Shown here in pieces: positions 19,365 to 64,000 of a DNA stretch of 64,000 nucleotides. Location: IMG/VR virus record IMGVR_UViG_3300033150_001736, positions 39,027 to 103,026 of that record; one strand, written 5' to 3'. Within the stretch, counting starts at the first letter, position 1. Each line of letters begins with the position of its first letter. The notes below the pieces were generated by a model. The model made no database searches and had not been told where the DNA came from. It was given only the letters and a program-made list of their open reading frames with translations. This DNA comes from a virus. The translations under genes and the position numbers were made by a program.

Positions 19365-21105
19365 TGATATCTCAAAAAATATCACTCTTTCATCTGCTAC
19401 AGATGAAGGGATAACTGTACTCGTAAGAGATTTAGGAATTATAAAATGGGTCAGTAGATGGAAGCTGGTAGCTGATATAGAAGTTGATACAGACAATGGA
19501 TTCAGTTTTGATTGTGCTATAAAGTTCTGGAACAATGATTTTTCAGTTCAATCCAGCCCTATAACTTTTACAGATTTACAAAGAAAAATTATAAGTTTTG
19601 AGGATTTTGTTTTTTGTGGTAATGAAGACTGGTTTTATGTGACTATTGAAGTGATTGATTATAATGGTAATACGTCTATTGATTTTACAATTCACAATTC
19701 ATTTTTAGTAAAAGGTGTTGATACTTTATTAATAAATAGCAATGGTAATTTGTTAAAAGATGAGCATCATTATAATTCCAGCTTGATTCTTGATGTTATA
19801 GATAATGAAGGAATCAATAGTGCTGGTTATCAAAGTTTAGTGGATTCATTGACAAGAGATTTAGTTCAAAGCCATTTGAGTATAAATAAGATTAGTGGTT
19901 TGTATCCTAGAGCTTTTGCAGATGGAGATTTTAGAGTGTTTAATGATGAAGGTGACAGTATGATTATTGTAAGTTTCGATCACAATAATGGTACTGATAT
20001 AGAAACCATAAATGTTACGTATTTAACAGGAACAGATGAGGTAAAAGTGACTACAGCTTTGGGATCGAATACTTTAAGTTATACTGGTCCTAATTTTTAT
20101 GAATTTCAAATAGTAAGTGGGCTCGATCAAGAAGATATAAGAGTGTGGGTAGATGTGGAAAAATCGAAAAGTCCTGGTCCTGTCAGTATAGGAGATATAG
20201 ACACAACAGTAGTTAGAAAGTATTTGAAAGGTTCTTTAGTAGAGCAAAAGAACTTTGATTTTATTGATCGGGGAAATGACTGGTTCAATTATTATAGACC
20301 TAAGAATAAGAGTGTGTTTGAGGAGAATCTTAATTTTTCTTTTGTGGGACCAGATTGGGAAGCTGATCTGACTTATGAAGCTATTCAAGATAAGAATTTA
20401 TGTTTACTTTTGAGAGATGGAGTTCCTATTCCTGATATTTATTGGGATTTTGTTGATAGTAATACAATCTCACTCGACAATGCTGAATTTGATAGCACGG
20501 CTGTTTATACTTTCAGTTACAAACTTGATCTTTTTATAACTTTTGAAATTGATATATCAGGATTTACGAGTATTAATGAAATGTATTTGTTACCTCTGAT
20601 TGATAATTTTAATCCTAATAGAAGTTTGATAGGAGAAGTTGATTTAGAAGAATCTGTAAACATAAATTCTGCTGGTGACGGAACTTTAAGGTTTTTTTCT
20701 AATGGAAATTTGGAGGATGTGGAAGTAAGAAGAATTGATAGAGATAGAGAGTTTATTCTTCCGGCTGATGGGATAATAGAAGTTGTAGATGATAGGATAA
20801 GAATAAATCCTTTTTATTTTAATGAGAATAGTTTGTATGTTGTGAGTTATAAGGGATTTCTTGCAAATGTGGATAGTTTTGCTGATGTATCTGTTACATG
20901 GAGATATCAGAAAGAAGATTTAAGTTGGTCATCTTTTACGGGTTGGGATGGAAGGACTTTAATTCCTCATAAATATTTTGACACAACAGTCAAGAATGTT
21001 CAAAAAATCGAATTAAAAGCTGAGATTGATACAATAGATAATCTTTTCTTTTTAAGAGGAATGGGATTAGTTTTTGTAAGTTTGAGAGCAGGAGAATTAT
21101 TTTAG
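19351..21105 (+). CDS. Large tail appendage protein (fibre/baseplate periphery)
   Basis: This 584-aa, beta-dominated, acidic and Asn/Asp-rich protein lacks membrane segments. It is composed of several beta domains, with recurring WxxEIDIS and YTFSYKLD strands. Position between baseplate genes and the main fibre suggests a fibre-attachment or proximal fibre protein. The ATG at 19351 lies inside the end of the preceding gene, so the two are probably co-translated. Confidence 0.6.
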   Translation: MPIYSDISKNITLSSATDEGITVLVRDLGIIKWVSRWKLVADIEVDTDNGFSFDCAIKFWNNDFSVQSSPITFTDLQRKIISFEDFVFCGNEDWFYVTIEVIDYNGNTSIDFTIHNSFLVKGVDTLLINSNGNLLKDEHHYNSSLILDVIDNEGINSAGYQSLVDSLTRDLVQSHLSINKISGLYPRAFADGDFRVFNDEGDSMIIVSFDHNNGTDIETINVTYLTGTDEVKVTTALGSNTLSYTGPNFYEFQIVSGLDQEDIRVWVDVEKSKSPGPVSIGDIDTTVVRKYLKGSLVEQKNFDFIDRGNDWFNYYRPKNKSVFEENLNFSFVGPDWEADLTYEAIQDKNLCLLLRDGVPIPDIYWDFVDSNTISLDNAEFDSTAVYTFSYKLDLFITFEIDISGFTSINEMYLLPLIDNFNPNRSLIGEVDLEESVNINSAGDGTLRFFSNGNLEDVEVRRIDRDREFILPADGIIEVVDDRIRINPFYFNENSLYVVSYKGFLANVDSFADVSVTWRYQKEDLSWSSFTGWDGRTLIPHKYFDTTVKNVQKIELKAEIDTIDNLFFLRGMGLVFVSLRAGELF

Positions 21106-21117
21106 TCGGAGGGTGTG

Positions 21118-24100
21118 ATGGATAAGTCTAATTTTCCAAATTCAGTTCCTTTTACTGGATCAGACTTAGTTTTTGAGTCTAATGCTAGGCAAAAGGTTGA
21201 TAGAAGAACTATAAAAGAAGGACTGCAAACAGGAGTAATTGAGGGTCTTATAGTATCTGTAAACGGATCAGATGCGACTAAGGTTGATATTTCTCCTGGA
21301 AATGGATATGTGGGAGATGTTGATTTTGGGGATAAGTTAGATTCAGAGTTTGGTTCTTATATAAAACATGGATCAGGGGCCACTTTAAATGCTCCTATTG
21401 GTGGATGGATTGCTGGAACTAATTATTATGTTAATGCTGTTTATAATGAGACTGTTACAATTCAAAGACCTGATGAAGATGGAACATCTTTATTTGATGT
21501 AAGAACTGAAAGCACGTCAGTTGATTGTACCTTTGAGATTATAACTGTTACAGATTATCTGGCTCTTAGTGATATTGATAAGCATAAGAGATTGAAGCTT
21601 GCTATAGTAACTCCCTCTGGAACTTCATTGGTGAGCAGTGATATAGAAAATTCTTATGTTATTGAAAGAGTTAAAACTGCTGGAACTTTATCTTTGACAG
21701 GTGTAGAAGTTCTTGAAGTTTCTTCAACTGCTGTTGATGGAACTTCTGAAATTGACTGGAATCAAGCAACAACAGAATTGAAATGGAAGGACGCAGGAGA
21801 TGGCTCGTTTGGAGCGTCTGTAGATATTTCGACAGATGGAATACATATTTTAGAATCTAACGTTACAAGTAAATTTATAAAAGTAAGAACCACATTAGCA
21901 TTGTTTCCAGCTTCAAGTGGAACCTTTGATCTTGAGATAAATGATCTGTATGAAGGAGTTATTAGACCTGCAAGTGGTGCAGATAGACTTTTAAGGAGTT
22001 ATGGTGGGTCTGCTCTTAAAACCAGAACAAATCCTTTGGGGTTGAGTATAGATGATTTGGGTGTTGGTGTGGGAGAAGATATAAAATCTCATAGAGTATA
22101 TATGCACAAGAATGGAATTGTATCTGATAATAGTAATACTCTAAAAGCTTCTATAATTCAAACATTGGAAGATTATTTAAGTTTAGGGGTTCTTGCCGGT
22201 GCTGACAGATTCTTCGTGAAAGGGAATGTGTTTACTGGTATAGTTGAATCTGAAGACTCTGCTCCTGCCGGGAATGAATATACGATTCAATTTAATGATT
22301 TTGATGATGGAGACTGGCATTTATTGGAGGTTTATGTTGATGAATTTGGAACTTTGAGCAGAAATGAATTGGCTAGTGTAAGTTCTCCTAATGTGATAGG
22401 AGTCGTTTTGCTTGATCTTCTTTTAGAAACACAAGCTAATTTTGATATTGATTATACTTATGTAAGTGTTGAGGAAAGGACTCTTCAATTTAATAACGGA
22501 GAAACTGTAACTTTAATTCCTGGAGCAGATGCTACTTATGAATTAACTGGAGAAAATGGATATGATAAACTTATAGTTTATGTGGATTGGGATGAACTTG
22601 ATACTTCAAATGCTTCTGATACCTGGGATATTGCTAATGCTCCTGTTGATGGAGTTGATGATAGTTTGAAGATTTGTAATATAGTTTATTTTAATTCAGT
22701 TCTTTATGGAGAGAATGCGGACTATATAACTGGTGGTGGAACTCCTTATGATTTAAGACAGTTTGGTACTCTAGGAGAAGAGAACTTTAGAAAGGATACA
22801 AAGGAATATATAGAGTTCCCAGGAAGAGAGATTTTAAGTAATGGGGTGATTCAAGGATTTGTATTGAATGAAAATCCTGCTAATAGTCTTGAGATTGGTC
22901 CAGGTAGGGGATACATAAAGGGAAAAGAAGTAGTATTGACTGATAGTACAACTATTGATTTTAGTACAGGTGCTTATGATAACAAAACTTGGTATGTATG
23001 GCTTTCTGATGATGGAACAATAGAAGCTCTTGAAGAACCTTTAGATAATAGCTCTAATGTGCTTGAGAGTGTTCTAGTTAGATTAGCTTCTGAAAGAATA
23101 ATACTAGCAAAAGTGGTAGTTGGTTCTAGTATAATATCTTCTTATTTGGATATGAGAAGCTATGTTGGAGTTGAAGATAGAAAAACAGATGATGATGAAA
23201 GTTTAGGTGTTTTAGTTCCTGAGTTGGAGATAAATAAATCTTTGATTTATCCTTCAGGAAGAATTATAAGGCTTGATGATGAGTTGCATATAACTAAAAA
23301 TTTGAGAAGGAATTATAGTACTGGAAAGTGGGAGTTAGAGGATTCTAGTAAACACGGAGTTACGGTTATTATTAAGTCCAATAGTGAAGATAAGGATTTA
23401 TTTTCAGTTAGACAACTTGAACCTTCATCTTCTCCTGTATCTGAAATTGATGATAGGGTATTATTTCAACAGAGTCCTTTCATACCTTATTTTAAAACAC
23501 TATATGGAAATGGTGAATTAGGTAATGTTGAACTATCGTCTAATACAGATTTGGGGACTGATAGAATAAGACAGTATAAGAATTTAACAATTAAAAGTGG
23601 AGTAGAATTAACAGGGAATGGTCCTTTTTTGATTATAGGAGTTCAGGAAAAACTTACTATTGAAAGTGGTGCAGTAATAAGACTTGATGGAATTGCAGGA
23701 GCTAGTTCTGTTGGAGGTCCTGGAAAGGGTGGAGTTGGGGGAAATGGTGGTTCAAATCCTGGAAATCCAGGACTTGCAAGTGGACCAGCTTCATATCCTA
23801 ATTACTATGCAAAAAATGGGTCAGCTAGAATAGGTGGTGGGGTTTTTTCTCCTTATTCTTTTGCCTCTGGTGGTGGTGGTGGTGGTGGTGGTTTAAGTTC
23901 TATCGGAGGAGGTGGTGCTGGTGGTGGTTACGGAGGTAATGGTGGTGATGTTTTTGTTGTTGGAAGTTCTGGAGTTGTAACTATGAATGGGATAGGAGAA
24001 TCTGCTTTAACTACAATTAAGATTAATAAACCTGAAGGTTTAATTTTAGTATCTAAAGGTGGAATTTTAGGATGGGGAGGGGGAGGAGGTGGTGGTGGTG

Positions 24101-26129: not shown

Positions 26130-27500
26130 ATGATACTTTTAGTAGATGGAGATAGTTTAGTTTGGAGGTCTGTAGCTACAGGGTCGGATTTTACTCACGG
26201 ATGGATTGTTCAAAAGATACTTGGAATTTCAGATAGTTATGATCCAGAGGCTTTGATTGTAATATGGGATGATCTATCAGAAAGAAGAAAAGAGATTTAC
26301 CCAGACTACAAAGCCCAGAGACATGTAGATGAAGAGCTGTTAGCTAAAAAGAAAACTTTGAAAAATGAAACTATTGAATCTTTGAGAATATGTGGAATCC
26401 CTCAATGCAGAGTTGAGGGGGAAGAGGGAGATGATGTTATAGCCACTTTTGTTAATAATATCTTTTCAGATGAGCAAATTCTTATCTGTTCAAATGATAA
26501 GGATTATTACTCTTTGCTTTCAAAAAGAGTTAAGATTTGGAACTGGAAGGAGGAGTATGATGAGTTTAAATTCAGAGGAGAATATCAGATCAATCCTGAA
26601 GATTGGATAAAACTAAGAAGTTTGATGGGGGATTCTTCAGATAATATTAAAGGTGTTTATGGGATAGGACCAAAGAAAGGTTTAGAAATAATTAAGAACG
26701 GTAACTATGGAGATTATGAGAATCAAGATGATGTTCAACTAAGCAAGAAATTATTGAGCTTTTTTGATATTGATGAAGATAAAATATCTTCTGGAATGGA
26801 TTTTGGTTCTATTGATTTTTTCAAGATCAAACAACTTTGTGAAGTCTGTAGAATGAACTATGATAATTTTTCAACTTTTGTATGGACACTTTATAACAAA
26901 TCAAAATTGAAAAAGTGGAGAATTAGTAGTCTTGAGAGTGAGATGGAAAGTTGTGATAGATGTAAGCTTCGGGAAAAAGCAAAGAATGTTGTTTGCTTTT
27001 CAGGTGACATAAATTCAGAAATTATGATTATAGGTGAAGCTCCAGGTAAGGAGGAGGATGAGACAGGAATCCCTTTCATTGGTAAAGCTGGGGATGAACT
27101 GGATCGTTGGTTAAGGAGAATAGGGCTTGATAGGAACTCTCTGTTAATATCCAATGTTTGTTGGTGCAGACCTGTAGATAAACATGGGGAGAACAAAGCA
27201 CCTACTGAGAAGCATGTCAGTTTTTGTAGTCAGTATGGGATTGAAAGGTTAATAAAATATGTTAATCCAAAGTTTATAATATTGTTAGGTAAATCTCCTT
27301 CTACTTACTTCATGAATACGAAAATAAAAGTTACTAGAGACTATGGTAAGTACAATGTAACAAAATGGGGAATGAAGTTTGTTGTTTGGATTCTACTTCA
27401 TCCCGCAGCTCTTTTGTATCAAAAGGATCAAGAAGGTATTGTTTTCGATCAACTTAGGGAGATGGGAGAATATTTAAGAAAGGAAGGGTATGTAAAATGA
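26130..27500 (+). CDS. Fusion of 5'-3' exonuclease (FEN/RNase H type) and family 4 uracil-DNA glycosylase
   Basis: This gene encodes 456 aa. Residues 1-200 are a FEN/PIN nuclease: LLVDGDSLVW start, WDDLSERRKEIYPDYKAQR, the acidic EGEEGDDVIATF cluster at 96-107, SNDKDYYSLL at 121-130, and the helix-hairpin-helix LMGDSSDNIKGVYGIGPKKG at 165-184. Residues 270-450 are an iron-sulphur uracil-DNA glycosylase: CDRC at 275-278, GEAPGKEED at 302-310, PFIGKAG, NVCWCRP with C346, C366, and HPA at 424-426. The first part would remove RNA primers and flaps; the second would excise uracil from DNA. I am not aware of this exact pairing as a standard arrangement. It opens the replication region, after an AAGGAGAT site. 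Confidence 0.85.
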   Translation: MILLVDGDSLVWRSVATGSDFTHGWIVQKILGISDSYDPEALIVIWDDLSERRKEIYPDYKAQRHVDEELLAKKKTLKNETIESLRICGIPQCRVEGEEGDDVIATFVNNIFSDEQILICSNDKDYYSLLSKRVKIWNWKEEYDEFKFRGEYQINPEDWIKLRSLMGDSSDNIKGVYGIGPKKGLEIIKNGNYGDYENQDDVQLSKKLLSFFDIDEDKISSGMDFGSIDFFKIKQLCEVCRMNYDNFSTFVWTLYNKSKLKKWRISSLESEMESCDRCKLREKAKNVVCFSGDINSEIMIIGEAPGKEEDETGIPFIGKAGDELDRWLRRIGLDRNSLLISNVCWCRPVDKHGENKAPTEKHVSFCSQYGIERLIKYVNPKFIILLGKSPSTYFMNTKIKVTRDYGKYNVTKWGMKFVVWILLHPAALLYQKDQEGIVFDQLREMGEYLRKEGYVK

Positions 27501-50449: not shown

Positions 50450-50617
50450 GTGCTCACGGGGTTTGAGTGTTTTGAAGTTTGGGGTGTTGTTTGGGATGTG
50501 GTTCAGTTTTTGTGTAATAGTGTTTGTTATGATTTGGTGGATGAGTTGGAGAGTTTTGGGTATTTTGGGAGGGTGTGGAATTGGAGTTTTCGGGATTGGC
50601 TTCAGATAGGGGTTTGA
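50450..50617 (+). CDS. 55-aa Trp-rich ORF at the start of the G+C-richer island
   Basis: Open frame from GTG 50450 to a TGA that overlaps the next ATG (TGATG at 50615-50619). The product starts VLTGFECFEVWGVVWDVV and ends RVWNWSFRDWLQIG. Coupling to the next gene supports translation, but no ATG exists and the ribosome site is poor. Codon use (TGG, GTG, GGG) departs from the phage average. Confidence 0.35.
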   Translation: MLTGFECFEVWGVVWDVVQFLCNSVCYDLVDELESFGYFGRVWNWSFRDWLQIGV

Positions 50618-50913
50618 TGGTGTGTAAGCGTGATTCTTCTCCGCTGACGAAGATGAAATTGCCGAGTGGTCTGGTCCTGGAGAGCGATGTGAACGATTGT
50701 TCCTGGAACGCTGGGGACCTTTGTGAGGTTCAGGAGATATCGGGCCAGTGTACTTTTACACAGGTGGGGGTGTGGTTGTGTAAGGCTTATGTTCCCTTCC
50801 CGTTGGTATGCAGGTCGAGGCTGGAGGCGATTCAATCGAGTTGCCGGCACCATAAGCGTGTTTTCACTTGCCGGGGGAAGCGATGTTGCCTGGATTGCAG
50901 TGAGGTGTTTTGA
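50617..50913 (+). CDS. Cys-rich zinc-binding protein in acquired island
   Basis: This gene encodes 98 aa from ATG 50617 (a GTG at 50575 is less likely). The C-terminus SSCRHHKRVFTCRGKRCCLDC is a compact zinc-ribbon-like cluster. The base composition is visibly more G+C-rich than the phage genes (CTGG, CCGG, GGCC codons). Coupled on both sides by TGATG. Family not recognised. Confidence 0.55.
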   Translation: MVCKRDSSPLTKMKLPSGLVLESDVNDCSWNAGDLCEVQEISGQCTFTQVGVWLCKAYVPFPLVCRSRLEAIQSSCRHHKRVFTCRGKRCCLDCSEVF

Positions 50914-56477: not shown

Positions 56478-56506
56478 TTGACAAACTAATGAAAAAGTGG
56501 TATAAT
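56478..56506 (+). promoter_or_regulatory. Consensus sigma70 promoter of the ankyrin array
   Basis: TTGACA (56478-56483), exactly 17 bases, TATAAT (56501-56506), both boxes perfect, with an upstream T-rich stretch and a TG before the -10. Transcription should start near 56513, 50 bases before the first ankyrin ATG. No operator-like palindrome overlaps it. Confidence 0.9.
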
Positions 56507-56562: not shown

Positions 56563-57201
56563 ATGAAAAAAGAATTAATGCTGATGAATGCAGCGCGTGA
56601 GGGACTTATTGAGATAGTAAAAAATCTACTCGATACAGGAGCGAATATACATGCTTGGAATGATTATGCTCTCCGCTGGGCGGCTGAAAATGGGCAGGTG
56701 GAAGTGGTAAAACTTTTGCTCGATGCTGGAGCAGATATACATGCTGGTGATGATTGTGCTCTCCGCTATGCGGCTGGAGAAGGTCATGCGGAGGTGGTGG
56801 AAATCCTGCTCGATGCCGGAGCGGACATACATGCTAGTGATGATTGTGCTTTTCGATGGGCGGCTGAAGAAGGTCATGCGGAGGTGGTGAAAATTCTCCT
56901 TTATGCCGGGGCGAATATACATGCTCGTGATGATTGTGCTCTGCGATGGGTGGCTAGAAAAGGTCATGCGGATGTGATGAAACTCCTGCTGGATACAGGA
57001 GCGAATATACATGCTTATAATGATTATGCTCTCCAGTGGGCGGCTAAAAACGGCCACACGGAAGTAGTGAAAATCCTGCTCGAAGCCGGAGCAAATATCT
57101 ATGCCGATAACAATTACGCTCTTCACTGTGCAACTAAAAACGGCCACACGGAAGTGGTAGAAATCCTACAGCAGGCTGAATCGGAAAGGAGAGAAAAATG
57201 A
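56563..57201 (+). CDS. Ankyrin-repeat protein 1
   Basis: This gene encodes 212 aa from ATG 56563 (AAAGGAG upstream), the first gene after the consensus promoter. N-cap MKKELMLMNAAREGLIEIVKNL, six full units (DYALRW, CALRY, CAFRW, CALRW, YALQW, YALHC) and the C-terminal cap ILQQAESERREK. Its N-cap is the most divergent in the array. No signal peptide or membrane segment, so it acts in the cytoplasm unless secreted by another route. Ends by ATGA overlap with gene 2. Confidence 0.9.
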   Translation: MKKELMLMNAAREGLIEIVKNLLDTGANIHAWNDYALRWAAENGQVEVVKLLLDAGADIHAGDDCALRYAAGEGHAEVVEILLDAGADIHASDDCAFRWAAEEGHAEVVKILLYAGANIHARDDCALRWVARKGHADVMKLLLDTGANIHAYNDYALQWAAKNGHTEVVKILLEAGANIYADNNYALHCATKNGHTEVVEILQQAESERREK

Positions 57202-57656
57202 CAAAAGAATCAATGTTGATAAGCGCGGCATATGAGGGGCGCATTGAAGATGTAAGGAGTTTGCTCGAAGCTGGAGCGAATATACACGCTGATGATGATT
57301 ATGCTCTCTGGTGTGCGGCTGGAAACGGTCATGCAGAGGTGGTAAAACTTTTGCTCGAAGCTGGAGCAGATATACACGCTATTGATGATTACGCTCTCCA
57401 GTGGGCGGCAAGAAATGGTCATGCAGAAGTAGTAAAAATTTTGCTTGATGCTGGCGCAAATATACACGCTATAGATGATTACGCTCTCCGTAGTGCGGCT
57501 GAAGAAGGTTACGTGAGTGTGGTGAAAATCCTGCTTGATGCAGGCGCAGATGTACATGCTGAAAACAATTGGGCTCTCCGCTGGGCAACCAAATGTGGTC
57601 ATACGAGGGTAGTGGAAATTTTACAGCAAGCTGAATCGGAAAGGAGAGAAAAATGA
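57198..57656 (+). CDS. Ankyrin-repeat protein 2
   Basis: This gene encodes 152 aa: N-cap MTKESMLISAAYEGRIEDVR, four units, C-cap QQAESERREK, identical to gene 1 in its last ten residues. ATGA overlaps at both ends place genes 1-3 under translational coupling. The third unit reads ALRSAAEEGYVSVVKIL, slightly diverged. Confidence 0.9.
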   Translation: MTKESMLISAAYEGRIEDVRSLLEAGANIHADDDYALWCAAGNGHAEVVKLLLEAGADIHAIDDYALQWAARNGHAEVVKILLDAGANIHAIDDYALRSAAEEGYVSVVKILLDAGADVHAENNWALRWATKCGHTRVVEILQQAESERREK

Positions 57657-58921
57657 CAAAAGAATCAATGTTGATAAGCGCGGCACGTGAGGGGCTTATC
57701 GAAACGGTAAGGAACCTGCTCGAATCGGGTACGGATGTACATGCTGAAGATGATTATGCTCTTCGGTGGGCCGCTTTCAAAGGGTATGTGGAAGTAGTGA
57801 AAATTCTCCTCGATGCAGGAGCGAATATCCATGCCGATGATGATTGCACTCTTCGCTGGGCGGTAGGAAACGGTCATGCAGAGGTGGTAAAACTTTTGCT
57901 CGATGCAGGAGCGGATATATATGCTAGAAATGGTTCTGCTCTCTGTTTAGCGGCTAAAAATGGTCACACGGAAATAGTAAAAATCCTGCTCGATGCTGGA
58001 GCGGTTATACATGCTCTTAATGATTTTGCTCTTTGTTTAGCGGCTAAAAATGGTCATGTGGAGGTAGTAAAAATCTTGCTCGATGCTGGTGCAAATATCC
58101 ATGCTAATAATGATTATGCTTTTCGTTATGCGGCACGTGAAGGTCATGCAGACATAGTAAAACTCCTCCTCGATGCTGGAGCGAATGTCCATGCTGATAA
58201 TGATTATGCTCTTCGGTGGGTGGTTGAAAATGGACATGTAGAAGTGGTGAAAATCCTGCTCGATACAGGTGTGAATATACATGCTTATAATGATACTGCT
58301 CTCCGTTGTGCGGCACGTGAAGGTCATGTAGAAGTGGTGAAAATCCTCCTTGATGCTGGTGCAAATATCCATGCTAATAATGATTACGCTCTCTGTTGGG
58401 CAGTCGAAAATGGACATGTGGAAGTAGTAAAAATTCTCCTCGATGCAGGAGCGAATATACATGCTGATGATGATTATGCTCTTCGTTGTGCGGTTGAAAA
58501 TGATTATGTAGGTATAGTAAAAATTCTCCTCGATGCAGGTGCAAATACACATGCTTGTAATGATACTGCTCTCTGTTGTGCGGCTGAAAATGGTTATACC
58601 GAAATAGTAAAACTCTTGCTCGATGCGGGAGCTAATATACATGCTGATGGTGATTGCGCTCTTTGCTATGCGGCTGAAAATGGACATGTGGAAGTAGTAA
58701 AAATCCTACTCGATACAGGAGCTAATATACACGCTGATGATGATTACGCTCTCCGATGTACGGCTAAAAATGGTCATGCGGATGTGGTGAAAGTCTTGCT
58801 CGATGCTGGTGCGGATGTCCATGCTAATGATGATTACGCTCTCCATTGGGCAATTGAAAACGATCACATGGAGGTGGTAGAAATCTTATTGGGATTTGGC
58901 GAAAGCAAATTGAATAATTGA
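57653..58921 (+). CDS. Ankyrin-repeat protein 3, largest copy
   Basis: This gene encodes 422 aa: N-cap MTKESMLISAAREGLIETVRNL plus 13 units, the longest in the window. The usual QQA cap is replaced by ILLGFGESKLNN. Several units are near copies (HANNDYA twice, KNGH runs), consistent with growth by unit duplication. Units 3 and 4 share LCLAAKNGH, a variant also found in gene 9. Confidence 0.92.
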   Translation: MTKESMLISAAREGLIETVRNLLESGTDVHAEDDYALRWAAFKGYVEVVKILLDAGANIHADDDCTLRWAVGNGHAEVVKLLLDAGADIYARNGSALCLAAKNGHTEIVKILLDAGAVIHALNDFALCLAAKNGHVEVVKILLDAGANIHANNDYAFRYAAREGHADIVKLLLDAGANVHADNDYALRWVVENGHVEVVKILLDTGVNIHAYNDTALRCAAREGHVEVVKILLDAGANIHANNDYALCWAVENGHVEVVKILLDAGANIHADDDYALRCAVENDYVGIVKILLDAGANTHACNDTALCCAAENGYTEIVKLLLDAGANIHADGDCALCYAAENGHVEVVKILLDTGANIHADDDYALRCTAKNGHADVVKVLLDAGADVHANDDYALHWAIENDHMEVVEILLGFGESKLNN

Positions 58922-58954
58922 AAAAGGAAAAAAGGATTGAAAGGGGAGAAAAAA

Positions 58955-59161
58955 ATGAAGCGGCAATTGAAAAATTGTGATATGATCTGGGATAATTCCA
59001 AAAAGGAAGAATACTGGATTTGCCGCAGAGATTTAGGAGGATGCGGAGCTCAGGTTCCTGACTCTTTCGGCAACACTTGCCCTCACTGTGGTCTGTGTCA
59101 CGGATGTTATCAACACCCTTGTGAGTGCCTGCCAGATGATTATCCAGCAGACCCTGATTGA
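58955..59161 (+). CDS. Cysteine-rich zinc-binding protein inside the ankyrin array
   Basis: This gene encodes 68 aa from ATG 58955 with AAAGGGGAG. Residues 23-62 hold nine cysteines (WICRRDLGGCGAQ, then NTCPHCGLCHGCYQHPCEC), enough for two zinc ions. It has no ankyrin similarity but lies between ankyrin genes 3 and 4 with the same A/G-rich leader, so it is co-transcribed. Could be an adaptor or effector for the ankyrin proteins; speculative. Confidence 0.65.
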   Translation: MKRQLKNCDMIWDNSKKEEYWICRRDLGGCGAQVPDSFGNTCPHCGLCHGCYQHPCECLPDDYPADPD

Positions 59162-59186
59162 GTATCAACTGAGAAAGGAGAAAAAA

Positions 59187-59735
59187 ATGACAAAAGAATC
59201 AATGTTGATAAGCGCGGCACGTGGGGGGCACGCTGAAGAGGTAAGAAGGCTCCTCGATGCAGGCGCAGATATACACGCTGATGATGATTATGCTCTTTGG
59301 TGGGCGGCTGGAAACGGGCATACAGGAGTAGTGAAAGTCCTGATAAATGCGGGGGCGGATATCCATGCTGATAGTGATTGTGCTCTCTGCAATGCGGCTA
59401 GAGAAGGTCACGCGGAGGTAGTGAAACTCCTCCTCGATGCCGGAGCGGATGTCCATGCTAAAGATGATTTTGCTCTTCGTTGGGCGGCTAGAAACGGGTA
59501 TACAGGAGTAGTGAAAGTCCTGCTCGAAGCAGGCGCGGAGGTACATGCTAGAGATGATTGGGCTCTCCGGTGGGCGGCTGGAAATGGTTATACGGAAGTG
59601 GTAAAACTCCTACTCGATACCGGGGCGGATATACATGCTAAAGATGATTATGCTCTTTGGTGGGCATCTGAAAATGACCATATAGAAGTAATAAAACTTT
59701 TACTCGATGCTGGGAGCGGATGTACATGCTTTTAA
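59187..59735 (+). CDS. Ankyrin-repeat protein 4, truncated by a one-base insertion
   Basis: N-cap MTKESMLISAARGGHAEEVRRL and five units, then the frame breaks at 59712-59714: GCTGGGAGCG instead of GCTGGAGCG. The product ends SGCTCF. In the corrected frame the sequence continues with HAFNDFALRWAIKNGH and the cap QQAESER to 59844, so the insertion is recent. The gene as written makes 182 aa with an unusual Cys tail. Confidence 0.8.
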   Translation: MTKESMLISAARGGHAEEVRRLLDAGADIHADDDYALWWAAGNGHTGVVKVLINAGADIHADSDCALCNAAREGHAEVVKLLLDAGADVHAKDDFALRWAARNGYTGVVKVLLEAGAEVHARDDWALRWAAGNGYTEVVKLLLDTGADIHAKDDYALWWASENDHIEVIKLLLDAGSGCTCF

Positions 59736-59844
59736 TGATTTTGCTCTCCGCTGGGCAATCAAAAATGGTCACACGGAAGTGGTGGAAATCTTACAACAAG
59801 CTGAATCGGAAAGGAGAAAAAAATGTCAAAAGAATCAATGTTGA
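59715..59844 (+). pseudogene. Out-of-frame last unit and cap of ankyrin gene 4
   Basis: Intact codons for one unit (DFALRWAIKNGHTEVVEIL) and the cap QQAESERRKK continue past the insertion and overlap the start of gene 5. No start codon. Removing one G from 59712-59714 would restore a standard gene of about 218 residues. A G-run slip during replication, sequencing error or recoding could explain it. Confidence 0.6.
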
Positions 59845-60359
59845 TAAATGCGGCACGTGTGGGTCATACTGAAAAAGTGAGAAATTTGATTGATGCAGGC
59901 GCAGATATACACGCTGATGATGATTATGCTCTCCGATGGGTGGCTGGGGAAGGTTATGTGAACGTAGTGAAAATCCTCCTCGATGCAGGTGCGGATGTAC
60001 ATGCTATAGATGATTGTGCCCTCCGTTGTGCGGCTGAAGAAGGCCATACGGATATAGTAAAAATCTTGATAGATGCAGGTGCGGATGTACATGCTATAGA
60101 TGATTGTGCCCTCCGGTGGGCGGCAAGAAATGGTCATGTGGATGTAGTGAAACTCCTACTCGATGCTGGAGCGAATATACACGCTGATGATGATTATGCA
60201 CTATATTGGGCCGCTTGCAAAGGTCATGTAGAAATAGTGAAAGTCCTGATAAATGCTGGTGCAGATGTACATACTAATAATGATGAGGCTCTCCGGTGGG
60301 CAATCAAAAATGGGCACAAGGAAGTAGTAAAAATCTTACAGCAAGCTGGAAAAGAATAA
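59823..60359 (+). CDS. Ankyrin-repeat protein 5
   Basis: This gene encodes 178 aa: N-cap MSKESMLINAARVGHTEKVR, five units, cap QQAGKE. Two units are identical over 44 bases at 59982 and 60072, exactly 90 bp apart (VHAIDDCALR), a clear recent duplication. First gene with the MSKES start used by the following copies. Confidence 0.9.
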   Translation: MSKESMLINAARVGHTEKVRNLIDAGADIHADDDYALRWVAGEGYVNVVKILLDAGADVHAIDDCALRCAAEEGHTDIVKILIDAGADVHAIDDCALRWAARNGHVDVVKLLLDAGANIHADDDYALYWAACKGHVEIVKVLINAGADVHTNNDEALRWAIKNGHKEVVKILQQAGKE

Positions 60360-60387
60360 TCAATAGTCAGGAAGGAAAGAAGAAAAA

Positions 60388-60834
60388 ATGTCAAAAGAAT
60401 CAATGTTGATAAGCGCGGCACGTGAGGGGTGTACTGAAGAGGTAAGGAGCCTGCTCGATGCAGGAGTGTATATACATGCTGAAGATGATTGTGCTCTCCG
60501 CTGTGCGGCTGAAGAAGGTCACACAGAAGTAGTAAAAATCTTACTCGATGCAGGCGCAGATATACACGCTGATGATGATTATGCTCTCTGGTGGGCGGCT
60601 GGAAACGGTCACACAGAAGTAGTAAAAATCTTACTCGATGCAGGAGCTAATATACACGCTGATAATGATTGGGCTCTCCGTTGGGCGGCTAGAAGCGGGT
60701 ATACAGGAATAGTAAAAATCCTGATAGATGCTGGAGCAAATGTACATGCTGATAATGGCTATGCTCTCCGTTGGGCAATCAAAAATGGGCACAAGGAAGT
60801 GGTGGAAATCTTGCAACAAGCTGATAATCAATAG
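60388..60834 (+). CDS. Ankyrin-repeat protein 6
   Basis: This gene encodes 148 aa: N-cap MSKESMLISAAREGCTEEVR, four units, cap QQADNQ. A 35-base identity recurs at 60517 and 60607, again 90 bp apart. The leader CAGGAAGGAAAGAAG is shared with later genes. Confidence 0.9.
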   Translation: MSKESMLISAAREGCTEEVRSLLDAGVYIHAEDDCALRCAAEEGHTEVVKILLDAGADIHADDDYALWWAAGNGHTEVVKILLDAGANIHADNDWALRWAARSGYTGIVKILIDAGANVHADNGYALRWAIKNGHKEVVEILQQADNQ

Positions 60835-60858
60835 CCAGGAAGGAAAGGAGAGAGAAAA

Positions 60859-61395
60859 ATGTCAAAAGAATCAATGTTGATAAGTGCGGCATATGAGGGG
60901 TGCATTGAAGAGGTAAGGAGTCTGCTCGATGCTGGAGCGGATGTCCATGCTGAAGATGATTGGGCTCTCCAGTGGGCGGCTGGAGAAGGTCATGTGGAGA
61001 TAGTGAAAATCCTGCTAGATGCCGATGCAGATATCCATGCCAATAATGATCGTGCTCTCCATTGGGCGGTCGGAAATGGACATATAAATGTGGTAAAAAT
61101 CCTGCTAGATGCCGATGCAGATATCCATGCCGATGATGATTGTGCTCTCCGCTGGGCGGCTGAAAATGGTTATACGGAAGTGGTAAAGATTCTATTAGAT
61201 GCAGGTGCAGATGTTCATGCTAGAGATGATTACGCTCTTCGGTATGCGGCTATAAGGAGTCATGCAGAAGTAGTAAAAATCCTACTCGAAGCTGGAGCGA
61301 ATATACATGCCAATAATGATGAGGCTCTTCGCTGGGCAACCGAAAATGGCCACAAGGAAGTAGTAAAAATTCTACAACAAGCTGATAATCAATAG
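60859..61395 (+). CDS. Ankyrin-repeat protein 7
   Basis: This gene encodes 178 aa: five units and cap QQADNQ. Two adjacent units share LLDADADIHA instead of the array-wide LLDAGADIHA, from one identical stretch 90 bp apart (about 61010 and 61100). The Gly-to-Asp change therefore spread with a unit copy. Confidence 0.9.
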   Translation: MSKESMLISAAYEGCIEEVRSLLDAGADVHAEDDWALQWAAGEGHVEIVKILLDADADIHANNDRALHWAVGNGHINVVKILLDADADIHADDDCALRWAAENGYTEVVKILLDAGADVHARDDYALRYAAIRSHAEVVKILLEAGANIHANNDEALRWATENGHKEVVKILQQADNQ

Positions 61396-61416
61396 CCAGG
61401 AAGGAAAGAAGGAAAA

Positions 61417-62064
61417 ATGTCAAAAGAATCAATGTTGATAAGCGCGGCACATGAGGGGTGTACTGAAGAGGTAAAAAATCTGCTCGATGCGGGTGCGGAT
61501 ATCCATGCCGATAACGATTGTGCTCTTCGGTGGGCGGCTGGAGAAGGTCATGCGGAGGTAGTAAAAATCCTACTTGATGCCGGTGCAGATATACATGCTG
61601 ATGATGACCACGCTCTCCGTTGGGCAGCTAGAAACGGTCATGTGGACGTGGTAGAACTCCTGCTCGATACCGGGGCCAATACAGATGATTATGCTCTCTG
61701 GTGGGCGGCTGAAGAAGGTCGTGCGGATGTGATAAAAATCTTGCTCGATGCTGGGGCAGATATACATGTTGGTAATGATTGCGCTCTCCGGTGGGCGGCT
61801 GGAGAAGGTCATGTGGAGGTAGTAAAAATCCTACTTGATGCCGGTGCAGATATACATGCTAACAATGATGAGGCTCTCCAGTGGGCGGCTGAAAAGGGTC
61901 GCACGGATGTAGTGAAAATCCTGATAAATGCTGGAGCAGATATACACGCTTGTAATGATTACGCCCTCCGTTGGGCAACCGAAGGCGGTCACACGGAGGT
62001 GGTGGAAATTTTACAACAGGCTGGAAAGGAAAGGAGGAAAAAATGTCAAAAGAATCAATGCTGA
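61417..62064 (+). CDS. Ankyrin-repeat protein 8
   Basis: This gene encodes 215 aa: six units. The third unit is three residues short (GANTDDYALWW, near 61675) through an in-frame loss of nine bases. The C-terminus runs through the leader of gene 9 (GKERRKKCQKNQC), overlapping its start by 22 bases. Confidence 0.9.
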   Translation: MSKESMLISAAHEGCTEEVKNLLDAGADIHADNDCALRWAAGEGHAEVVKILLDAGADIHADDDHALRWAARNGHVDVVELLLDTGANTDDYALWWAAEEGRADVIKILLDAGADIHVGNDCALRWAAGEGHVEVVKILLDAGADIHANNDEALQWAAEKGRTDVVKILINAGADIHACNDYALRWATEGGHTEVVEILQQAGKERRKKCQKNQC

Positions 62065-62579
62065 TAAGCGCGGCGCGTGAGGGGCTTGCCGAAACAGTAA
62101 GAAGCCTGCTCGATGCCGGAGCGGATATACATATTGATAATGATTACGCTCTCCAGTGGGCGGCTATAAATGGTCATACGGAAGTGGTAAAAATTCTTCT
62201 CGATGCCGGAGCAAATATACACGCTTGTAATGATTACACCCTCCGCTGGACGGCTAGAGAAGGTCATATAGATGTAGTGAAAATCCTACTCGATGCAGGC
62301 GCAGATATACATGCCGGTAATGATTATGCTCTCCAGTGGGCGGCTGGAGAAGGTCATGCGGAGGTGGTAAAACTCCTACTTGATGTCGGTGCAAATATAC
62401 ACGCTGATGATGATTACGCTCTTTGTTTAGCGGCTAAAAATGGCCATGTGGATATAGTGAAAATCCTACTCAATGCTGGCGCGGATATACATGCTAAAGA
62501 TGATTCTGCTCTCCACTGGGCAATTGAAAACGATCACATGGATGTGGTAAAAATTCTACAACAAGCTGATAATCAATAG
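62043..62579 (+). CDS. Ankyrin-repeat protein 9
   Basis: This gene encodes 178 aa from ATG 62043 (AAAGGAGG upstream): N-cap MSKESMLISAAREGLAETVR, five units, cap QQADNQ. The fourth unit has the ALCLAAKNGH variant and the last the ALHWAIENDHM variant, both also in gene 3, which points to exchange between distant copies. Confidence 0.9.
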   Translation: MSKESMLISAAREGLAETVRSLLDAGADIHIDNDYALQWAAINGHTEVVKILLDAGANIHACNDYTLRWTAREGHIDVVKILLDAGADIHAGNDYALQWAAGEGHAEVVKLLLDVGANIHADDDYALCLAAKNGHVDIVKILLNAGADIHAKDDSALHWAIENDHMDVVKILQQADNQ

Positions 62580-62593
62580 CCAGGAAGGAAAAA

Positions 62594-63130
62594 ATGTCAA
62601 AAGAATCAATGCTGATAAGCGCGGCGCGTGAGGGGCTTGCCGAAACAGTAAAGAGCCTGCTGGATGCCGGAGCGGATATACATGCTGAAGATGATGAAGC
62701 ACTATACTGGGCCATTCGCAAAGGGTATATGGAAGTAATAAAAATCCTACTCGATGCTGGAGCGGATATACACGCTAGAGATAATTACGATTTCCGCTGG
62801 GCGGCAAGAAACGGTCATGTAGAAATAATAAAAGTTTTGCTTGAAGCCGGTGCGAATGTACACGCTTGTAATGATTTCGCTCTCCAGTGGGCGGCTGGAG
62901 AAGGTCATGCGGAGGTAGTAAAAATCCTACTCGATGCAGGTGCAGATATACATGCTGAAGATGACCATGCTCTTCGGTGGGCGGCTGGAAAGGGTCGCAC
63001 GGATGTAGTGAAACTCCTGCTCGATTCCGGGGCAGATGTACATACTAATAATGATGAAGCTCTTCGGTGGGCAATCAAAAATGGGCACAAGGAAGTAGTA
63101 AAAATTTTACAGCAAGCTGGAAAAGAATAA
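62594..63130 (+). CDS. Ankyrin-repeat protein 10
   Basis: This gene encodes 178 aa, N-cap as gene 9, five units, cap QQAGKE as gene 5. The second unit is the most irregular (DNYDFRWAARNGH). The short leader CAGGAAGGAAAAAATG has lost part of the usual spacer. Confidence 0.9.
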   Translation: MSKESMLISAAREGLAETVKSLLDAGADIHAEDDEALYWAIRKGYMEVIKILLDAGADIHARDNYDFRWAARNGHVEIIKVLLEAGANVHACNDFALQWAAGEGHAEVVKILLDAGADIHAEDDHALRWAAGKGRTDVVKLLLDSGADVHTNNDEALRWAIKNGHKEVVKILQQAGKE

Positions 63131-63158
63131 TCAATAGTCAGGAAGGAAAGAAGAAAAA

Positions 63159-63530
63159 ATGTCAAAAGAATCAATATTGATAAGCACAGCAATGGTAAGT
63201 GCGGCACGTGAGGGGTTTGCCGAGATAGTAAAAATTTTACTTGATGCTGGAGCTGATGTCCATATTGATGATGATTGTGCTCTTCATTGTGCGGCAGGAA
63301 ACGGACACGCAAATGTAGTAAAAATCTTGCTTGACGCGGGAGCAAACGTACACGCTCGTAATGATTATGCACTCCAATGGACGGCTAAAAATGGCCACGT
63401 GGATGTGGTAGAGATTTTAATCGAAGCTGGAGCGGATATACATGCCTGTAACGATCTTGCTCTCCGGTGGGCAATCGAAAGTGGCCACAAGGAAGTAGTA
63501 AAAATTCTACAACAAGCTGATAATCAATAA
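63159..63530 (+). CDS. Ankyrin-repeat protein 11, shortest copy
   Basis: This gene encodes 123 aa: three units only. The N-cap carries a five-residue insertion (ISTAMVSAAREG instead of ISAAREG). Cap QQADNQ. Shows that the array also loses units. Confidence 0.88.
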   Translation: MSKESILISTAMVSAAREGFAEIVKILLDAGADVHIDDDCALHCAAGNGHANVVKILLDAGANVHARNDYALQWTAKNGHVDVVEILIEAGADIHACNDLALRWAIESGHKEVVKILQQADNQ

Positions 63531-63554
63531 CCAGGAAGGAAAGGAGAGAGAAAA

Positions 63555-64000
63555 ATGACAAAAGAATCAATGCTGATAAATGCGGCACGTGAGGGGTGTA
63601 CTGAAGAGGTAAAAAATCTGCTCGATGCGGGTGCGGATATACATGTTTGTAATGATTATGCTCTTCAGTGGGCGGCTGGAGAAGGTCATACGGAGGTAGT
63701 AAAAATCCTACTTGATGCAGGTGCAGATATACATGCTAACAATGATGAGGCTCTCCAGTGGGCGGCCAGAAAAGGATATGTAGAAGTGGTGAAAATCTTG
63801 CTTGATGCTGGAGCGGATATCCATGCTGAAGATGATTATGCTCTCCGTTGTGCGGCAGGAAACGGTCATGCAGAGGTGGTAAAACTTTTGCTCGATGCTG
63901 GCGCGAATATCCATGCTGGAGATAATTTTGCTCTCCGTCATGCGGCTGGAGAAAATCATGCGGAAGTGGTAAAGCTCCTGCTCGATGCGGGGGCGGATGT
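63555..64000 (+). CDS. Ankyrin-repeat protein 12 (3' partial)
   Basis: Starts at ATG 63555 with the usual GGAGAG leader, N-cap MTKESMLINAAREGCTEEVK, at least four units, open to the last base of the window. The array continues downstream. Confidence 0.9.
   Translation, partial: MTKESMLINAAREGCTEEVKNLLDAGADIHVCNDYALQWAAGEGHTEVVKILLDAGADIHANNDEALQWAARKGYVEVVKILLDAGADIHAEDDYALRCAAGNGHAEVVKLLLDAGANIHAGDNFALRHAAGENHAEVVKLLLDAGAD

What the first reader, a model, noticed from the sequence alone, without database searches (positions are those of the whole stretch)
56563..64000. Tandem array of at least twelve ankyrin-repeat genes on a phage genome
Twelve paralogues with a common N-cap (M-[ST]-KES-[MI]-LI in all but the first) and mostly a QQA-type C-cap stand head to tail behind one consensus promoter, and the array runs off the window. 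Single ankyrin genes on phages are known (the ankyphages of sponge symbionts, proposed to modulate eukaryotic immunity), but I know of no described phage locus with this serial structure. It could be a repertoire of binding proteins against host, competitor-phage or eukaryotic targets.
Basis: partly seen in the sequence, partly recalled or inferred. Interest (0 to 1): 0.93.

Follow-up and report, generated by a model that had tools for sequence, protein, structure and literature searches.

The report
Phage array of ankyrin binding-protein genes
A tailed bacterial virus carries at least fifteen small ankyrin-repeat proteins, most in one head-to-tail run behind a strong bacterial promoter; similar runs occur in several unrelated phages, so this looks like an expandable set of molecular binders used inside the infected bacterium, though no target has been shown.

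Summary
Window 56563-63998 encodes twelve same-strand ankyrin (ANK) genes. They belong to a tailed phage: the window is the end of a 103,026-bp IMG/VR contig with terminase, portal, capsid, tape-measure and baseplate genes. The array runs off the contig end and two ANK genes open the contig start; two more precede the terminase genes. A perfect extended -10 sigma-70 promoter lies just upstream, and every array start I checked has a Shine-Dalgarno site. A giant-virus chimera is therefore very unlikely.

Repeats are exactly 30 residues, modelled with high confidence as a capped ANK solenoid with no other domain. All 70 internal repeats differ. Purifying selection holds the core (dN/dS 0.16), while variation concentrates at classical target-contact positions (0.82). 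The same positions vary in unrelated phages.

It is not unique. Sequence scans found comparable runs in several unrelated viral contigs, including a 150-kb phage with 19 ANK genes. Two of the 16 genes have lost their C-terminal cap, suggesting birth and death.

Best reading: a repertoire of stand-alone binders made in the bacterium, probably against host proteins (counter-defence or takeover), evolving by duplication and recombination. Targets, host and timing are unknown. Eukaryote-directed effectors remain possible but lack support.

The parts
56478..56506 (+). sigma-70 promoter TTGACA-17-TATAAT with TGn (12/12, extended -10)
   Evidence: genome-wide rarity
56563..57201 (+). ANK gene 1 (212 aa, 7 repeats; divergent N-cap MKKELMLM)
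57198..57656 (+). ANK gene 2 (152 aa, 5 repeats; overlaps gene 1 by 4 bp)
57653..58921 (+). ANK gene 3 (422 aa, 14 repeats; overlaps gene 2 by 4 bp; C-terminus not QQA)
58937..59161 (+). 74-aa cysteine-rich (zinc-ribbon-like) ORF inside the array, no family match
59187..59735 (+). ANK gene 4 (~182 aa, 6 repeats); a frameshift cuts off the last repeat and QQA C-cap, which continue in another frame to about 59820
59823..60359 (+). ANK gene 5 (178 aa, 6 repeats)
60388..60834 (+). ANK gene 6 (148 aa, 5 repeats)
60859..61395 (+). ANK gene 7 (178 aa, 6 repeats); modelled, pLDDT 95
61417..62064 (+). ANK gene 8 (215 aa, 7 repeats; one repeat shortened by 3 residues)
62043..62579 (+). ANK gene 9 (178 aa, 6 repeats; overlaps gene 8)
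62594..63130 (+). ANK gene 10 (178 aa, 6 repeats)
63159..63530 (+). ANK gene 11 (123 aa, 4 repeats)
63555..64000 (+). ANK gene 12 (148+ aa, cut by the contig end)

Best explanation
The locus is a multigene repertoire of self-contained ankyrin-repeat binding proteins carried by a large tailed phage. Shown by sequence: the genes are phage genes with bacterial start signals, behind a consensus host-type promoter, encoding capped ANK solenoids with no enzyme or targeting domain, under purifying selection in the core and with variation concentrated on the surface that ANK proteins normally use to grip partners. Inferred: host RNA polymerase transcribes the array strongly without phage factors, probably early, and the bacterium's ribosomes make many different DARPin-like binders in the cytoplasm. 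Each would bind and block, sequester or redirect a bacterial protein, most likely a defence or host-takeover target. Copies are gained, reshuffled and lost by duplication and recombination between near-identical gene junctions, so the phage can field many specificities (a genomic accordion).
For: Phage context: terminase, portal, MCP, tape measure, baseplate J and Pol A, RecA. Promoter and SD. Fold: 178-aa gene 7 modelled at pLDDT 95 with helices from residue 3 to 176, i.e. only caps and repeats; nearest solved structures are DARPins and designed binders. Selection: 70 internal units all unique in DNA and protein; dN/dS 0.30 overall, 0.16 core, 0.82 at positions 29, 2, 5, 9, 10, 13. Similar positions vary most in unrelated phages (Spearman 0.58-0.83 against this phage). 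Birth and death: one frameshifted and one stop-truncated copy; exact repeats of 40-69 bp, many at gene junctions; no correlation between N-cap, first and last repeat distances across genes (Mantel r 0.09, -0.13, -0.26, none significant). Recurrence: arrays in other phages, each with its own caps. Setting in two of them, read by eye: at the lysis/early boundary in G3, next to RecT- and YqaJ-like genes in G4.
Against: No target, no expression data, no host. Variation at hairpin and helix-1 positions is typical of ANK proteins in general and does not prove diversifying selection; dN/dS over those positions stays below 1 and synonymous sites are near saturation. Absence of correlation between repeats can also come from saturation. 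A host-type promoter does not prove early timing. Counter-defence is a guess by analogy: no known anti-defence protein was matched.
Confidence: 0.45

Rival explanations
1. Eukaryote-directed effectors, as proposed for ankyphages and phage WO: the phage arms its bacterial host with ANK proteins that act in a protist or animal.
For: Precedents PMC9203015, PMC7532657, PMC11309003 (coral phages rich in ANK genes). Closest predicted viral structures are giant-virus ANK proteins.
Against: No signal peptide, membrane segment, F-box, PRANC or other effector domain seen in the array proteins. The host-type promoter and SD favour expression in the bacterium, though this does not exclude later secretion. 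The closest MCP relative among annotated phages comes from a methane-oxidising enrichment, not an animal symbiont.
Confidence: 0.2
2. Superinfection exclusion: the binders target proteins of competing phages or plasmids rather than host proteins.
For: Several ANK-bearing viral contigs come from the same metagenomes (3300033141, 3300005573), so related competitors are plausible.
Against: No direct evidence; I saw no integrase, and a lytic phage has less use for long-term exclusion.
Confidence: 0.13
3. Largely neutral or selfish expansion: ANK genes multiply by slippage and unequal recombination with little function.
For: Repetitive DNA, two disrupted copies of sixteen, uneven lengths.
Against: Core dN/dS 0.16 with intact caps, SD and start codons in nearly all copies; arrays in unrelated phages.
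Confidence: 0.14
4. Virion or assembly scaffolding proteins.
For: ANK solenoids can scaffold; two ANK genes lie just upstream of the terminase genes.
Against: Variable gene and repeat number; no ANK gene in two 50-kb relatives whose terminase is 56% identical and which cover the terminase region.
Confidence: 0.05
5. Assembly artefact or chimera with a eukaryotic or giant-virus contig.
For: Contig ends lie in the repeats, foreign-looking composition (four-fold-site GC 0.40 against 0.18), closest viral structures from giant viruses.
Against: Same array in three assemblies; same family embedded at 20.5-22.1 kb among phage genes with a 57-bp exact match; SD and sigma-70 signals. The exact gene number across the contig ends is however unresolved.
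Confidence: 0.03

Closest known systems
Tandem ankyrin genes of Bodo saltans virus and other giant viruses (PMC5871332)
   Same: Directional tandem ANK genes with 4-17 repeats each (here 4-14 within the array), interpreted as a genomic accordion; giant-virus ANK proteins (Pithovirus LCPAC302, Tupanvirus, mimiviruses) are the closest predicted viral structures, the two best 44 and 52% identical
   Different: A eukaryotic giant virus with 148 copies in the genome periphery and fusions to fragments of viral enzymes; here a tailed phage with bacterial signals and pure ANK proteins
Phage WO of Wolbachia (eukaryotic association module)
   Same: Tailed phage with several clustered ANK genes
   Different: Large heterogeneous genes with 33-residue repeats and other domains (TPR, PRANC), in an endosymbiont; not a homogeneous paralogue array
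Ankyphages of sponge symbionts (ANKp)
   Same: ANK gene on a tailed phage
   Different: Reported as an ANK protein that dampens the eukaryotic immune response and phagocytosis (PMC7532657); here at least fifteen stand-alone genes and no eukaryotic link shown
DARPins / designed ankyrin binders
   Same: Capped ANK solenoid with variation at the contact surface
   Different: Natural, 30-residue instead of 33-residue repeat
Amplified anti-defence loci of phages T4 and T6 (PMC9391042, PMC13096335)
   Same: Copy-number expansion of counter-defence genes is a known phage strategy
   Different: Those are fresh amplifications of a locus; here diverged paralogues, and counter-defence is unproven

Membership tests
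Ankyrin repeat proteins (Pfam Ank clan) | Over the curated Ank cut-offs and tandem helix-turn-helix units | tested here: met
   eight of twelve scanned, all over cut-off; all twelve by HMM; 12 helices, pLDDT 95
Ankyrin repeat proteins (Pfam Ank clan) | Canonical 33-residue period with TPLH motif | tested here: not met
   period exactly 30 in all 16 genes, motif DxALRWAA; a length variant of the ANK repeat rather than another fold, so the assignment to the fold stands
Ankyphage ANKp type (eukaryote immune modulation) | ANK protein exported by the bacterium to act on a eukaryote | tested here: inconclusive
   no hydrophobic leader in the array proteins (sequences; helix starts at residue 3); other export routes and activity not testable here
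Phage WO eukaryotic association module | Eukaryotic-like domains fused to or beside the ANK genes | tested here: not met
   strong matches of the array proteins are all to Ank families; neighbours are methyltransferases, VanY, MoxR-like, DUF2201
Giant-virus tandem ANK arrays | Located on a nucleocytoplasmic large DNA virus | tested here: not met
   tailed-phage terminase, portal, MCP, baseplate
Diversity-generating retroelement targets | Reverse transcriptase in the genome | tested here: not met
   no RVT_1 match in the record
Known anti-phage defence system components | Specific PADLOC family match | tested here: inconclusive
   two array proteins scanned: matches to PDC-M72A and a model named Ankyrin, which an ANK repeat alone may cause
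Anti-defence proteins | Inhibition of a bacterial defence system | not testable with these tools
   needs experiment

The most novel reading that the evidence does not exclude
Large phages of unrelated lineages independently maintain expandable arrays of DARPin-like ankyrin binders, mostly of a 30-residue repeat class, as a repertoire-type counter-immunity or host-takeover strategy; the same repeat class is shared with giant eukaryotic viruses, which also carry ANK arrays, so bacterial and eukaryotic viruses share one binder toolkit by transfer or convergence.
Probability: 0.3. Interest if true: 0.88.

Novelty: new variant of a known kind. Interest (0 to 1): 0.64.

Why it matters
If the proteins bind bacterial targets, the array would be a natural library of ready-made binders against host or defence proteins, and each partner would name a protein worth attacking in that bacterium. 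It would also show that the copy-number accordion proposed for giant viruses operates with the same protein scaffold in bacterial viruses. Because the arrays break short-read assemblies, they are probably under-counted: a long-read marine study found ankyrin-repeat proteins ten times more often than in its assembled data sets (PMC9238414).

Tried and rejected
Chimera or giant-virus origin: rejected (see rivals). DGR diversification: no reverse transcriptase. Link with the MoxR-DUF2201 (VWA) pair that lies beside ANK genes in this phage and in the 150-kb phage, and a DUF2201 gene within about 8 kb in the 377-kb one: not pressed, because DUF2201 relatives occur in 796 of 50,697 phage records and none was found in the smaller ANK contigs. 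Host identification: the capsid protein gave no match in 399 genomes of the phylum of the Clostridium MAG (uninformative without a positive control); no paper in the library names the metagenomes. Relatives covering the array locus: RecA, Pol A and DUF2201 scans returned only the same contig and its twins or distant ones, so the age of the main array is unknown. Order of gene duplication: not recoverable. Literature: the searches found no description of a tandem ANK array in a tailed phage, but the library holds open-licence papers only.

Full report
What is there. The window is G000:39027-103026, the last 64 kb of a 103,026-bp virus record. Viral-contig scans show two contigs of that length, IMGVR_UViG_3300033141_004202 and 3300033149_004753, and a longer sister, 3300033148_007227, of 103,855 bp. 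From 56563 to the end lie twelve same-strand ANK genes. Eight were scanned with Pfam and all are far over the Ank cut-offs. Intergenic distances run from -22 to +28 bp, except around a 74-aa cysteine-rich ORF (58937-59161) and before gene 5. The starts carry a purine-rich Shine-Dalgarno site, mostly AAAGGA or AAGGAG (sequences; one search scores 92% of ANK genes because one start there was miscalled). A 12/12 extended -10 promoter at 56478-56506 ends 57 bp before the first start; a first-order simulation expects about 0.03 perfect hexamer pairs per strand of the contig.

It continues past the contig end. Contig bases 1-572 encode the tail of one ANK gene and a complete short one with the same caps. 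The 829 extra bases of the sister assembly add about two more genes, and in it the last 114 bp of our contig are followed directly by base 41 of our contig. This fits a circularly permuted or circular genome cut inside an array that short reads cannot resolve; the exact number of genes stays open. Two more ANK genes lie at contig 20515-22146, upstream of the terminase genes, with a 57-bp exact match to the array. In all 16 ANK ORFs are seen in this contig, 14 of them in the array; because the last and the first array ORF are both cut by the contig ends and could be one gene, there are at least 15 distinct genes. Two are damaged at the C-terminus: gene 4 by a frameshift and the second gene of the small cluster by an in-frame stop.

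It is a phage. Terminase, portal, major head protein and tape measure match PHROGs families; baseplate J, DNA polymerase A, an SbcC-like ATPase and ThyX, RecA, NusG and a D12 methyltransferase are present. The MCP is 50% identical to that of Virus Rctr197k from a methane-oxidising enrichment. Two 50-kb relatives share 56% of the terminase and 69-75% of the MCP and have no ANK gene, although they cover the terminase region. The ANK genes have a four-fold-site GC of 0.40 against 0.18 (s.d. 0.08) for the rest, which suggests foreign origin or separate constraint.

The proteins. Every gene has a 30-residue period. Gene 7 is modelled at mean pLDDT 95 as twelve helices from residue 3 to 176 of 178. 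The closest solved structures are DARPins and other designed ankyrins; the closest predicted viral ones are giant-virus ANK proteins, Tupanvirus at 52% identity and 1.0 A rmsd among them. That giant-virus repeats also have the 30-residue period is my knowledge plus that fit; I did not measure it. Seventy internal units are all distinct. A pairwise count gives dN/dS 0.30 overall, 0.16 for the core and 0.82 for positions 29, 2, 5, 9, 10 and 13; the hairpin and first-helix positions among them correspond to those randomised in DARPins (from my knowledge). Positions 29, 9, 2, 10 and 5/6 are also among the most variable in unrelated phage contigs, and the entropy profiles correlate (Spearman 0.58-0.83). 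Site ratios are approximate because synonymous differences are near saturation, and this pattern is common among ANK proteins.

How widespread. Scans with array alignments brought in dozens of viral contigs. Runs of at least three adjacent ANK genes occur in 3300023179_000261, 3300005573_000004 (150 kb, 19 ANK genes, 33-residue repeats, some with hydrophobic leaders), 3300036987_000310 (377 kb), 3300037461_001096, 3300037264_007062 and 3300022874_001951. The 150-kb and 377-kb ones have only a distant MCP relative (26-27% identity), so they are different phages. Caps and repeat consensus differ between records. In this phage, G3, G4 and G15, and more weakly in the Clostridium contig and L125, repeats are closer to repeats of other genes in the same record than to those of any other record; in G14, G9 and L128 they are not. 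The 30-residue D-x-AL....AA consensus recurs in most of them, and also in a Clostridium MAG contig beside genes that look to me like spoIIIA genes. Among 50,697 annotated phage records only Wolbachia phage WO and Leptospira phages matched at 1e-5.

Mechanism. Shown: phage genes, bacterial expression signals, pure ANK solenoids, conserved core, variable contact surface, decay of some copies, recurrence. Inferred: early high-level expression, many binding specificities, bacterial targets, counter-defence or takeover. I put the repertoire-of-binders part at about 0.75 and the whole explanation with intrabacterial host targets at 0.45. Eukaryotic targets (0.2), near-neutral expansion (0.14) and competitor elements (0.13) stay open.

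Against the literature. ANK genes on phages are known (ankyphages and WO: PMC9203015; coral phages: PMC11309003), tandem ANK arrays are known in a giant virus (PMC5871332), and copy-number expansion of anti-defence genes is known in T4-like phages (PMC9391042, PMC13096335). The combination, a homogeneous tandem array of stand-alone 30-residue ANK genes in tailed phages, I did not find described in the open-licence library. I therefore rate it a new variant of a known kind.

Noticed in passing
L125, L128, L136, L146, L151, L224, L241 and contig 3300032053_000163 (L030-L031): Many otherwise different proteins of these viral contigs, ANK ones among them, start with a shared leader (M[KR]AKFV[NY]E.I..IL.PKS.EE, MKLVREHINEKF or MIKFEQYLNE). 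It looks like a phage-wide N-terminal tag, perhaps for packaging or processing.
   Followed up: no
window 26130-27500: One 456-aa ORF joins a 5'-3' exonuclease to a uracil-DNA glycosylase domain, a fusion that I do not know from elsewhere.
   Followed up: no
L011:849-4241 and L165:12386-14960: MoxR-like AAA plus DUF2201 (metallopeptidase-VWA) genes lie beside ANK genes in two unrelated phages; DUF2201 is common in phages, so the link may be chance.
   Followed up: partly
L011:5309-7975 and L012:9356-11494: The ribonucleotide reductase and portal ORFs appear to carry inteins, judged by eye.
   Followed up: no
L041-L069 (rabbit Akkermansia MAGs): Bacterial contigs with up to six neighbouring large ANK genes sharing leaders; repeats of about 32-35 residues in the two contigs measured.
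   Followed up: partly
L039 and L045 (uncultured Clostridium MAG): Two tandem ANK genes with the 30-residue consensus and identical leaders, downstream of spoIIIA-like genes: a possible bacterial relative or source.
   Followed up: partly
L165:16630-18870: In the 150-kb phage, a stretch holding a 158-aa and a 100-aa gene is repeated nearly identically in tandem.
   Followed up: no
window 50617-50913: ORF with four-fold-site GC of 0.63 in a genome averaging 0.18, just before the D12 methyltransferase: another possible recent import, or not a gene.
   Followed up: no
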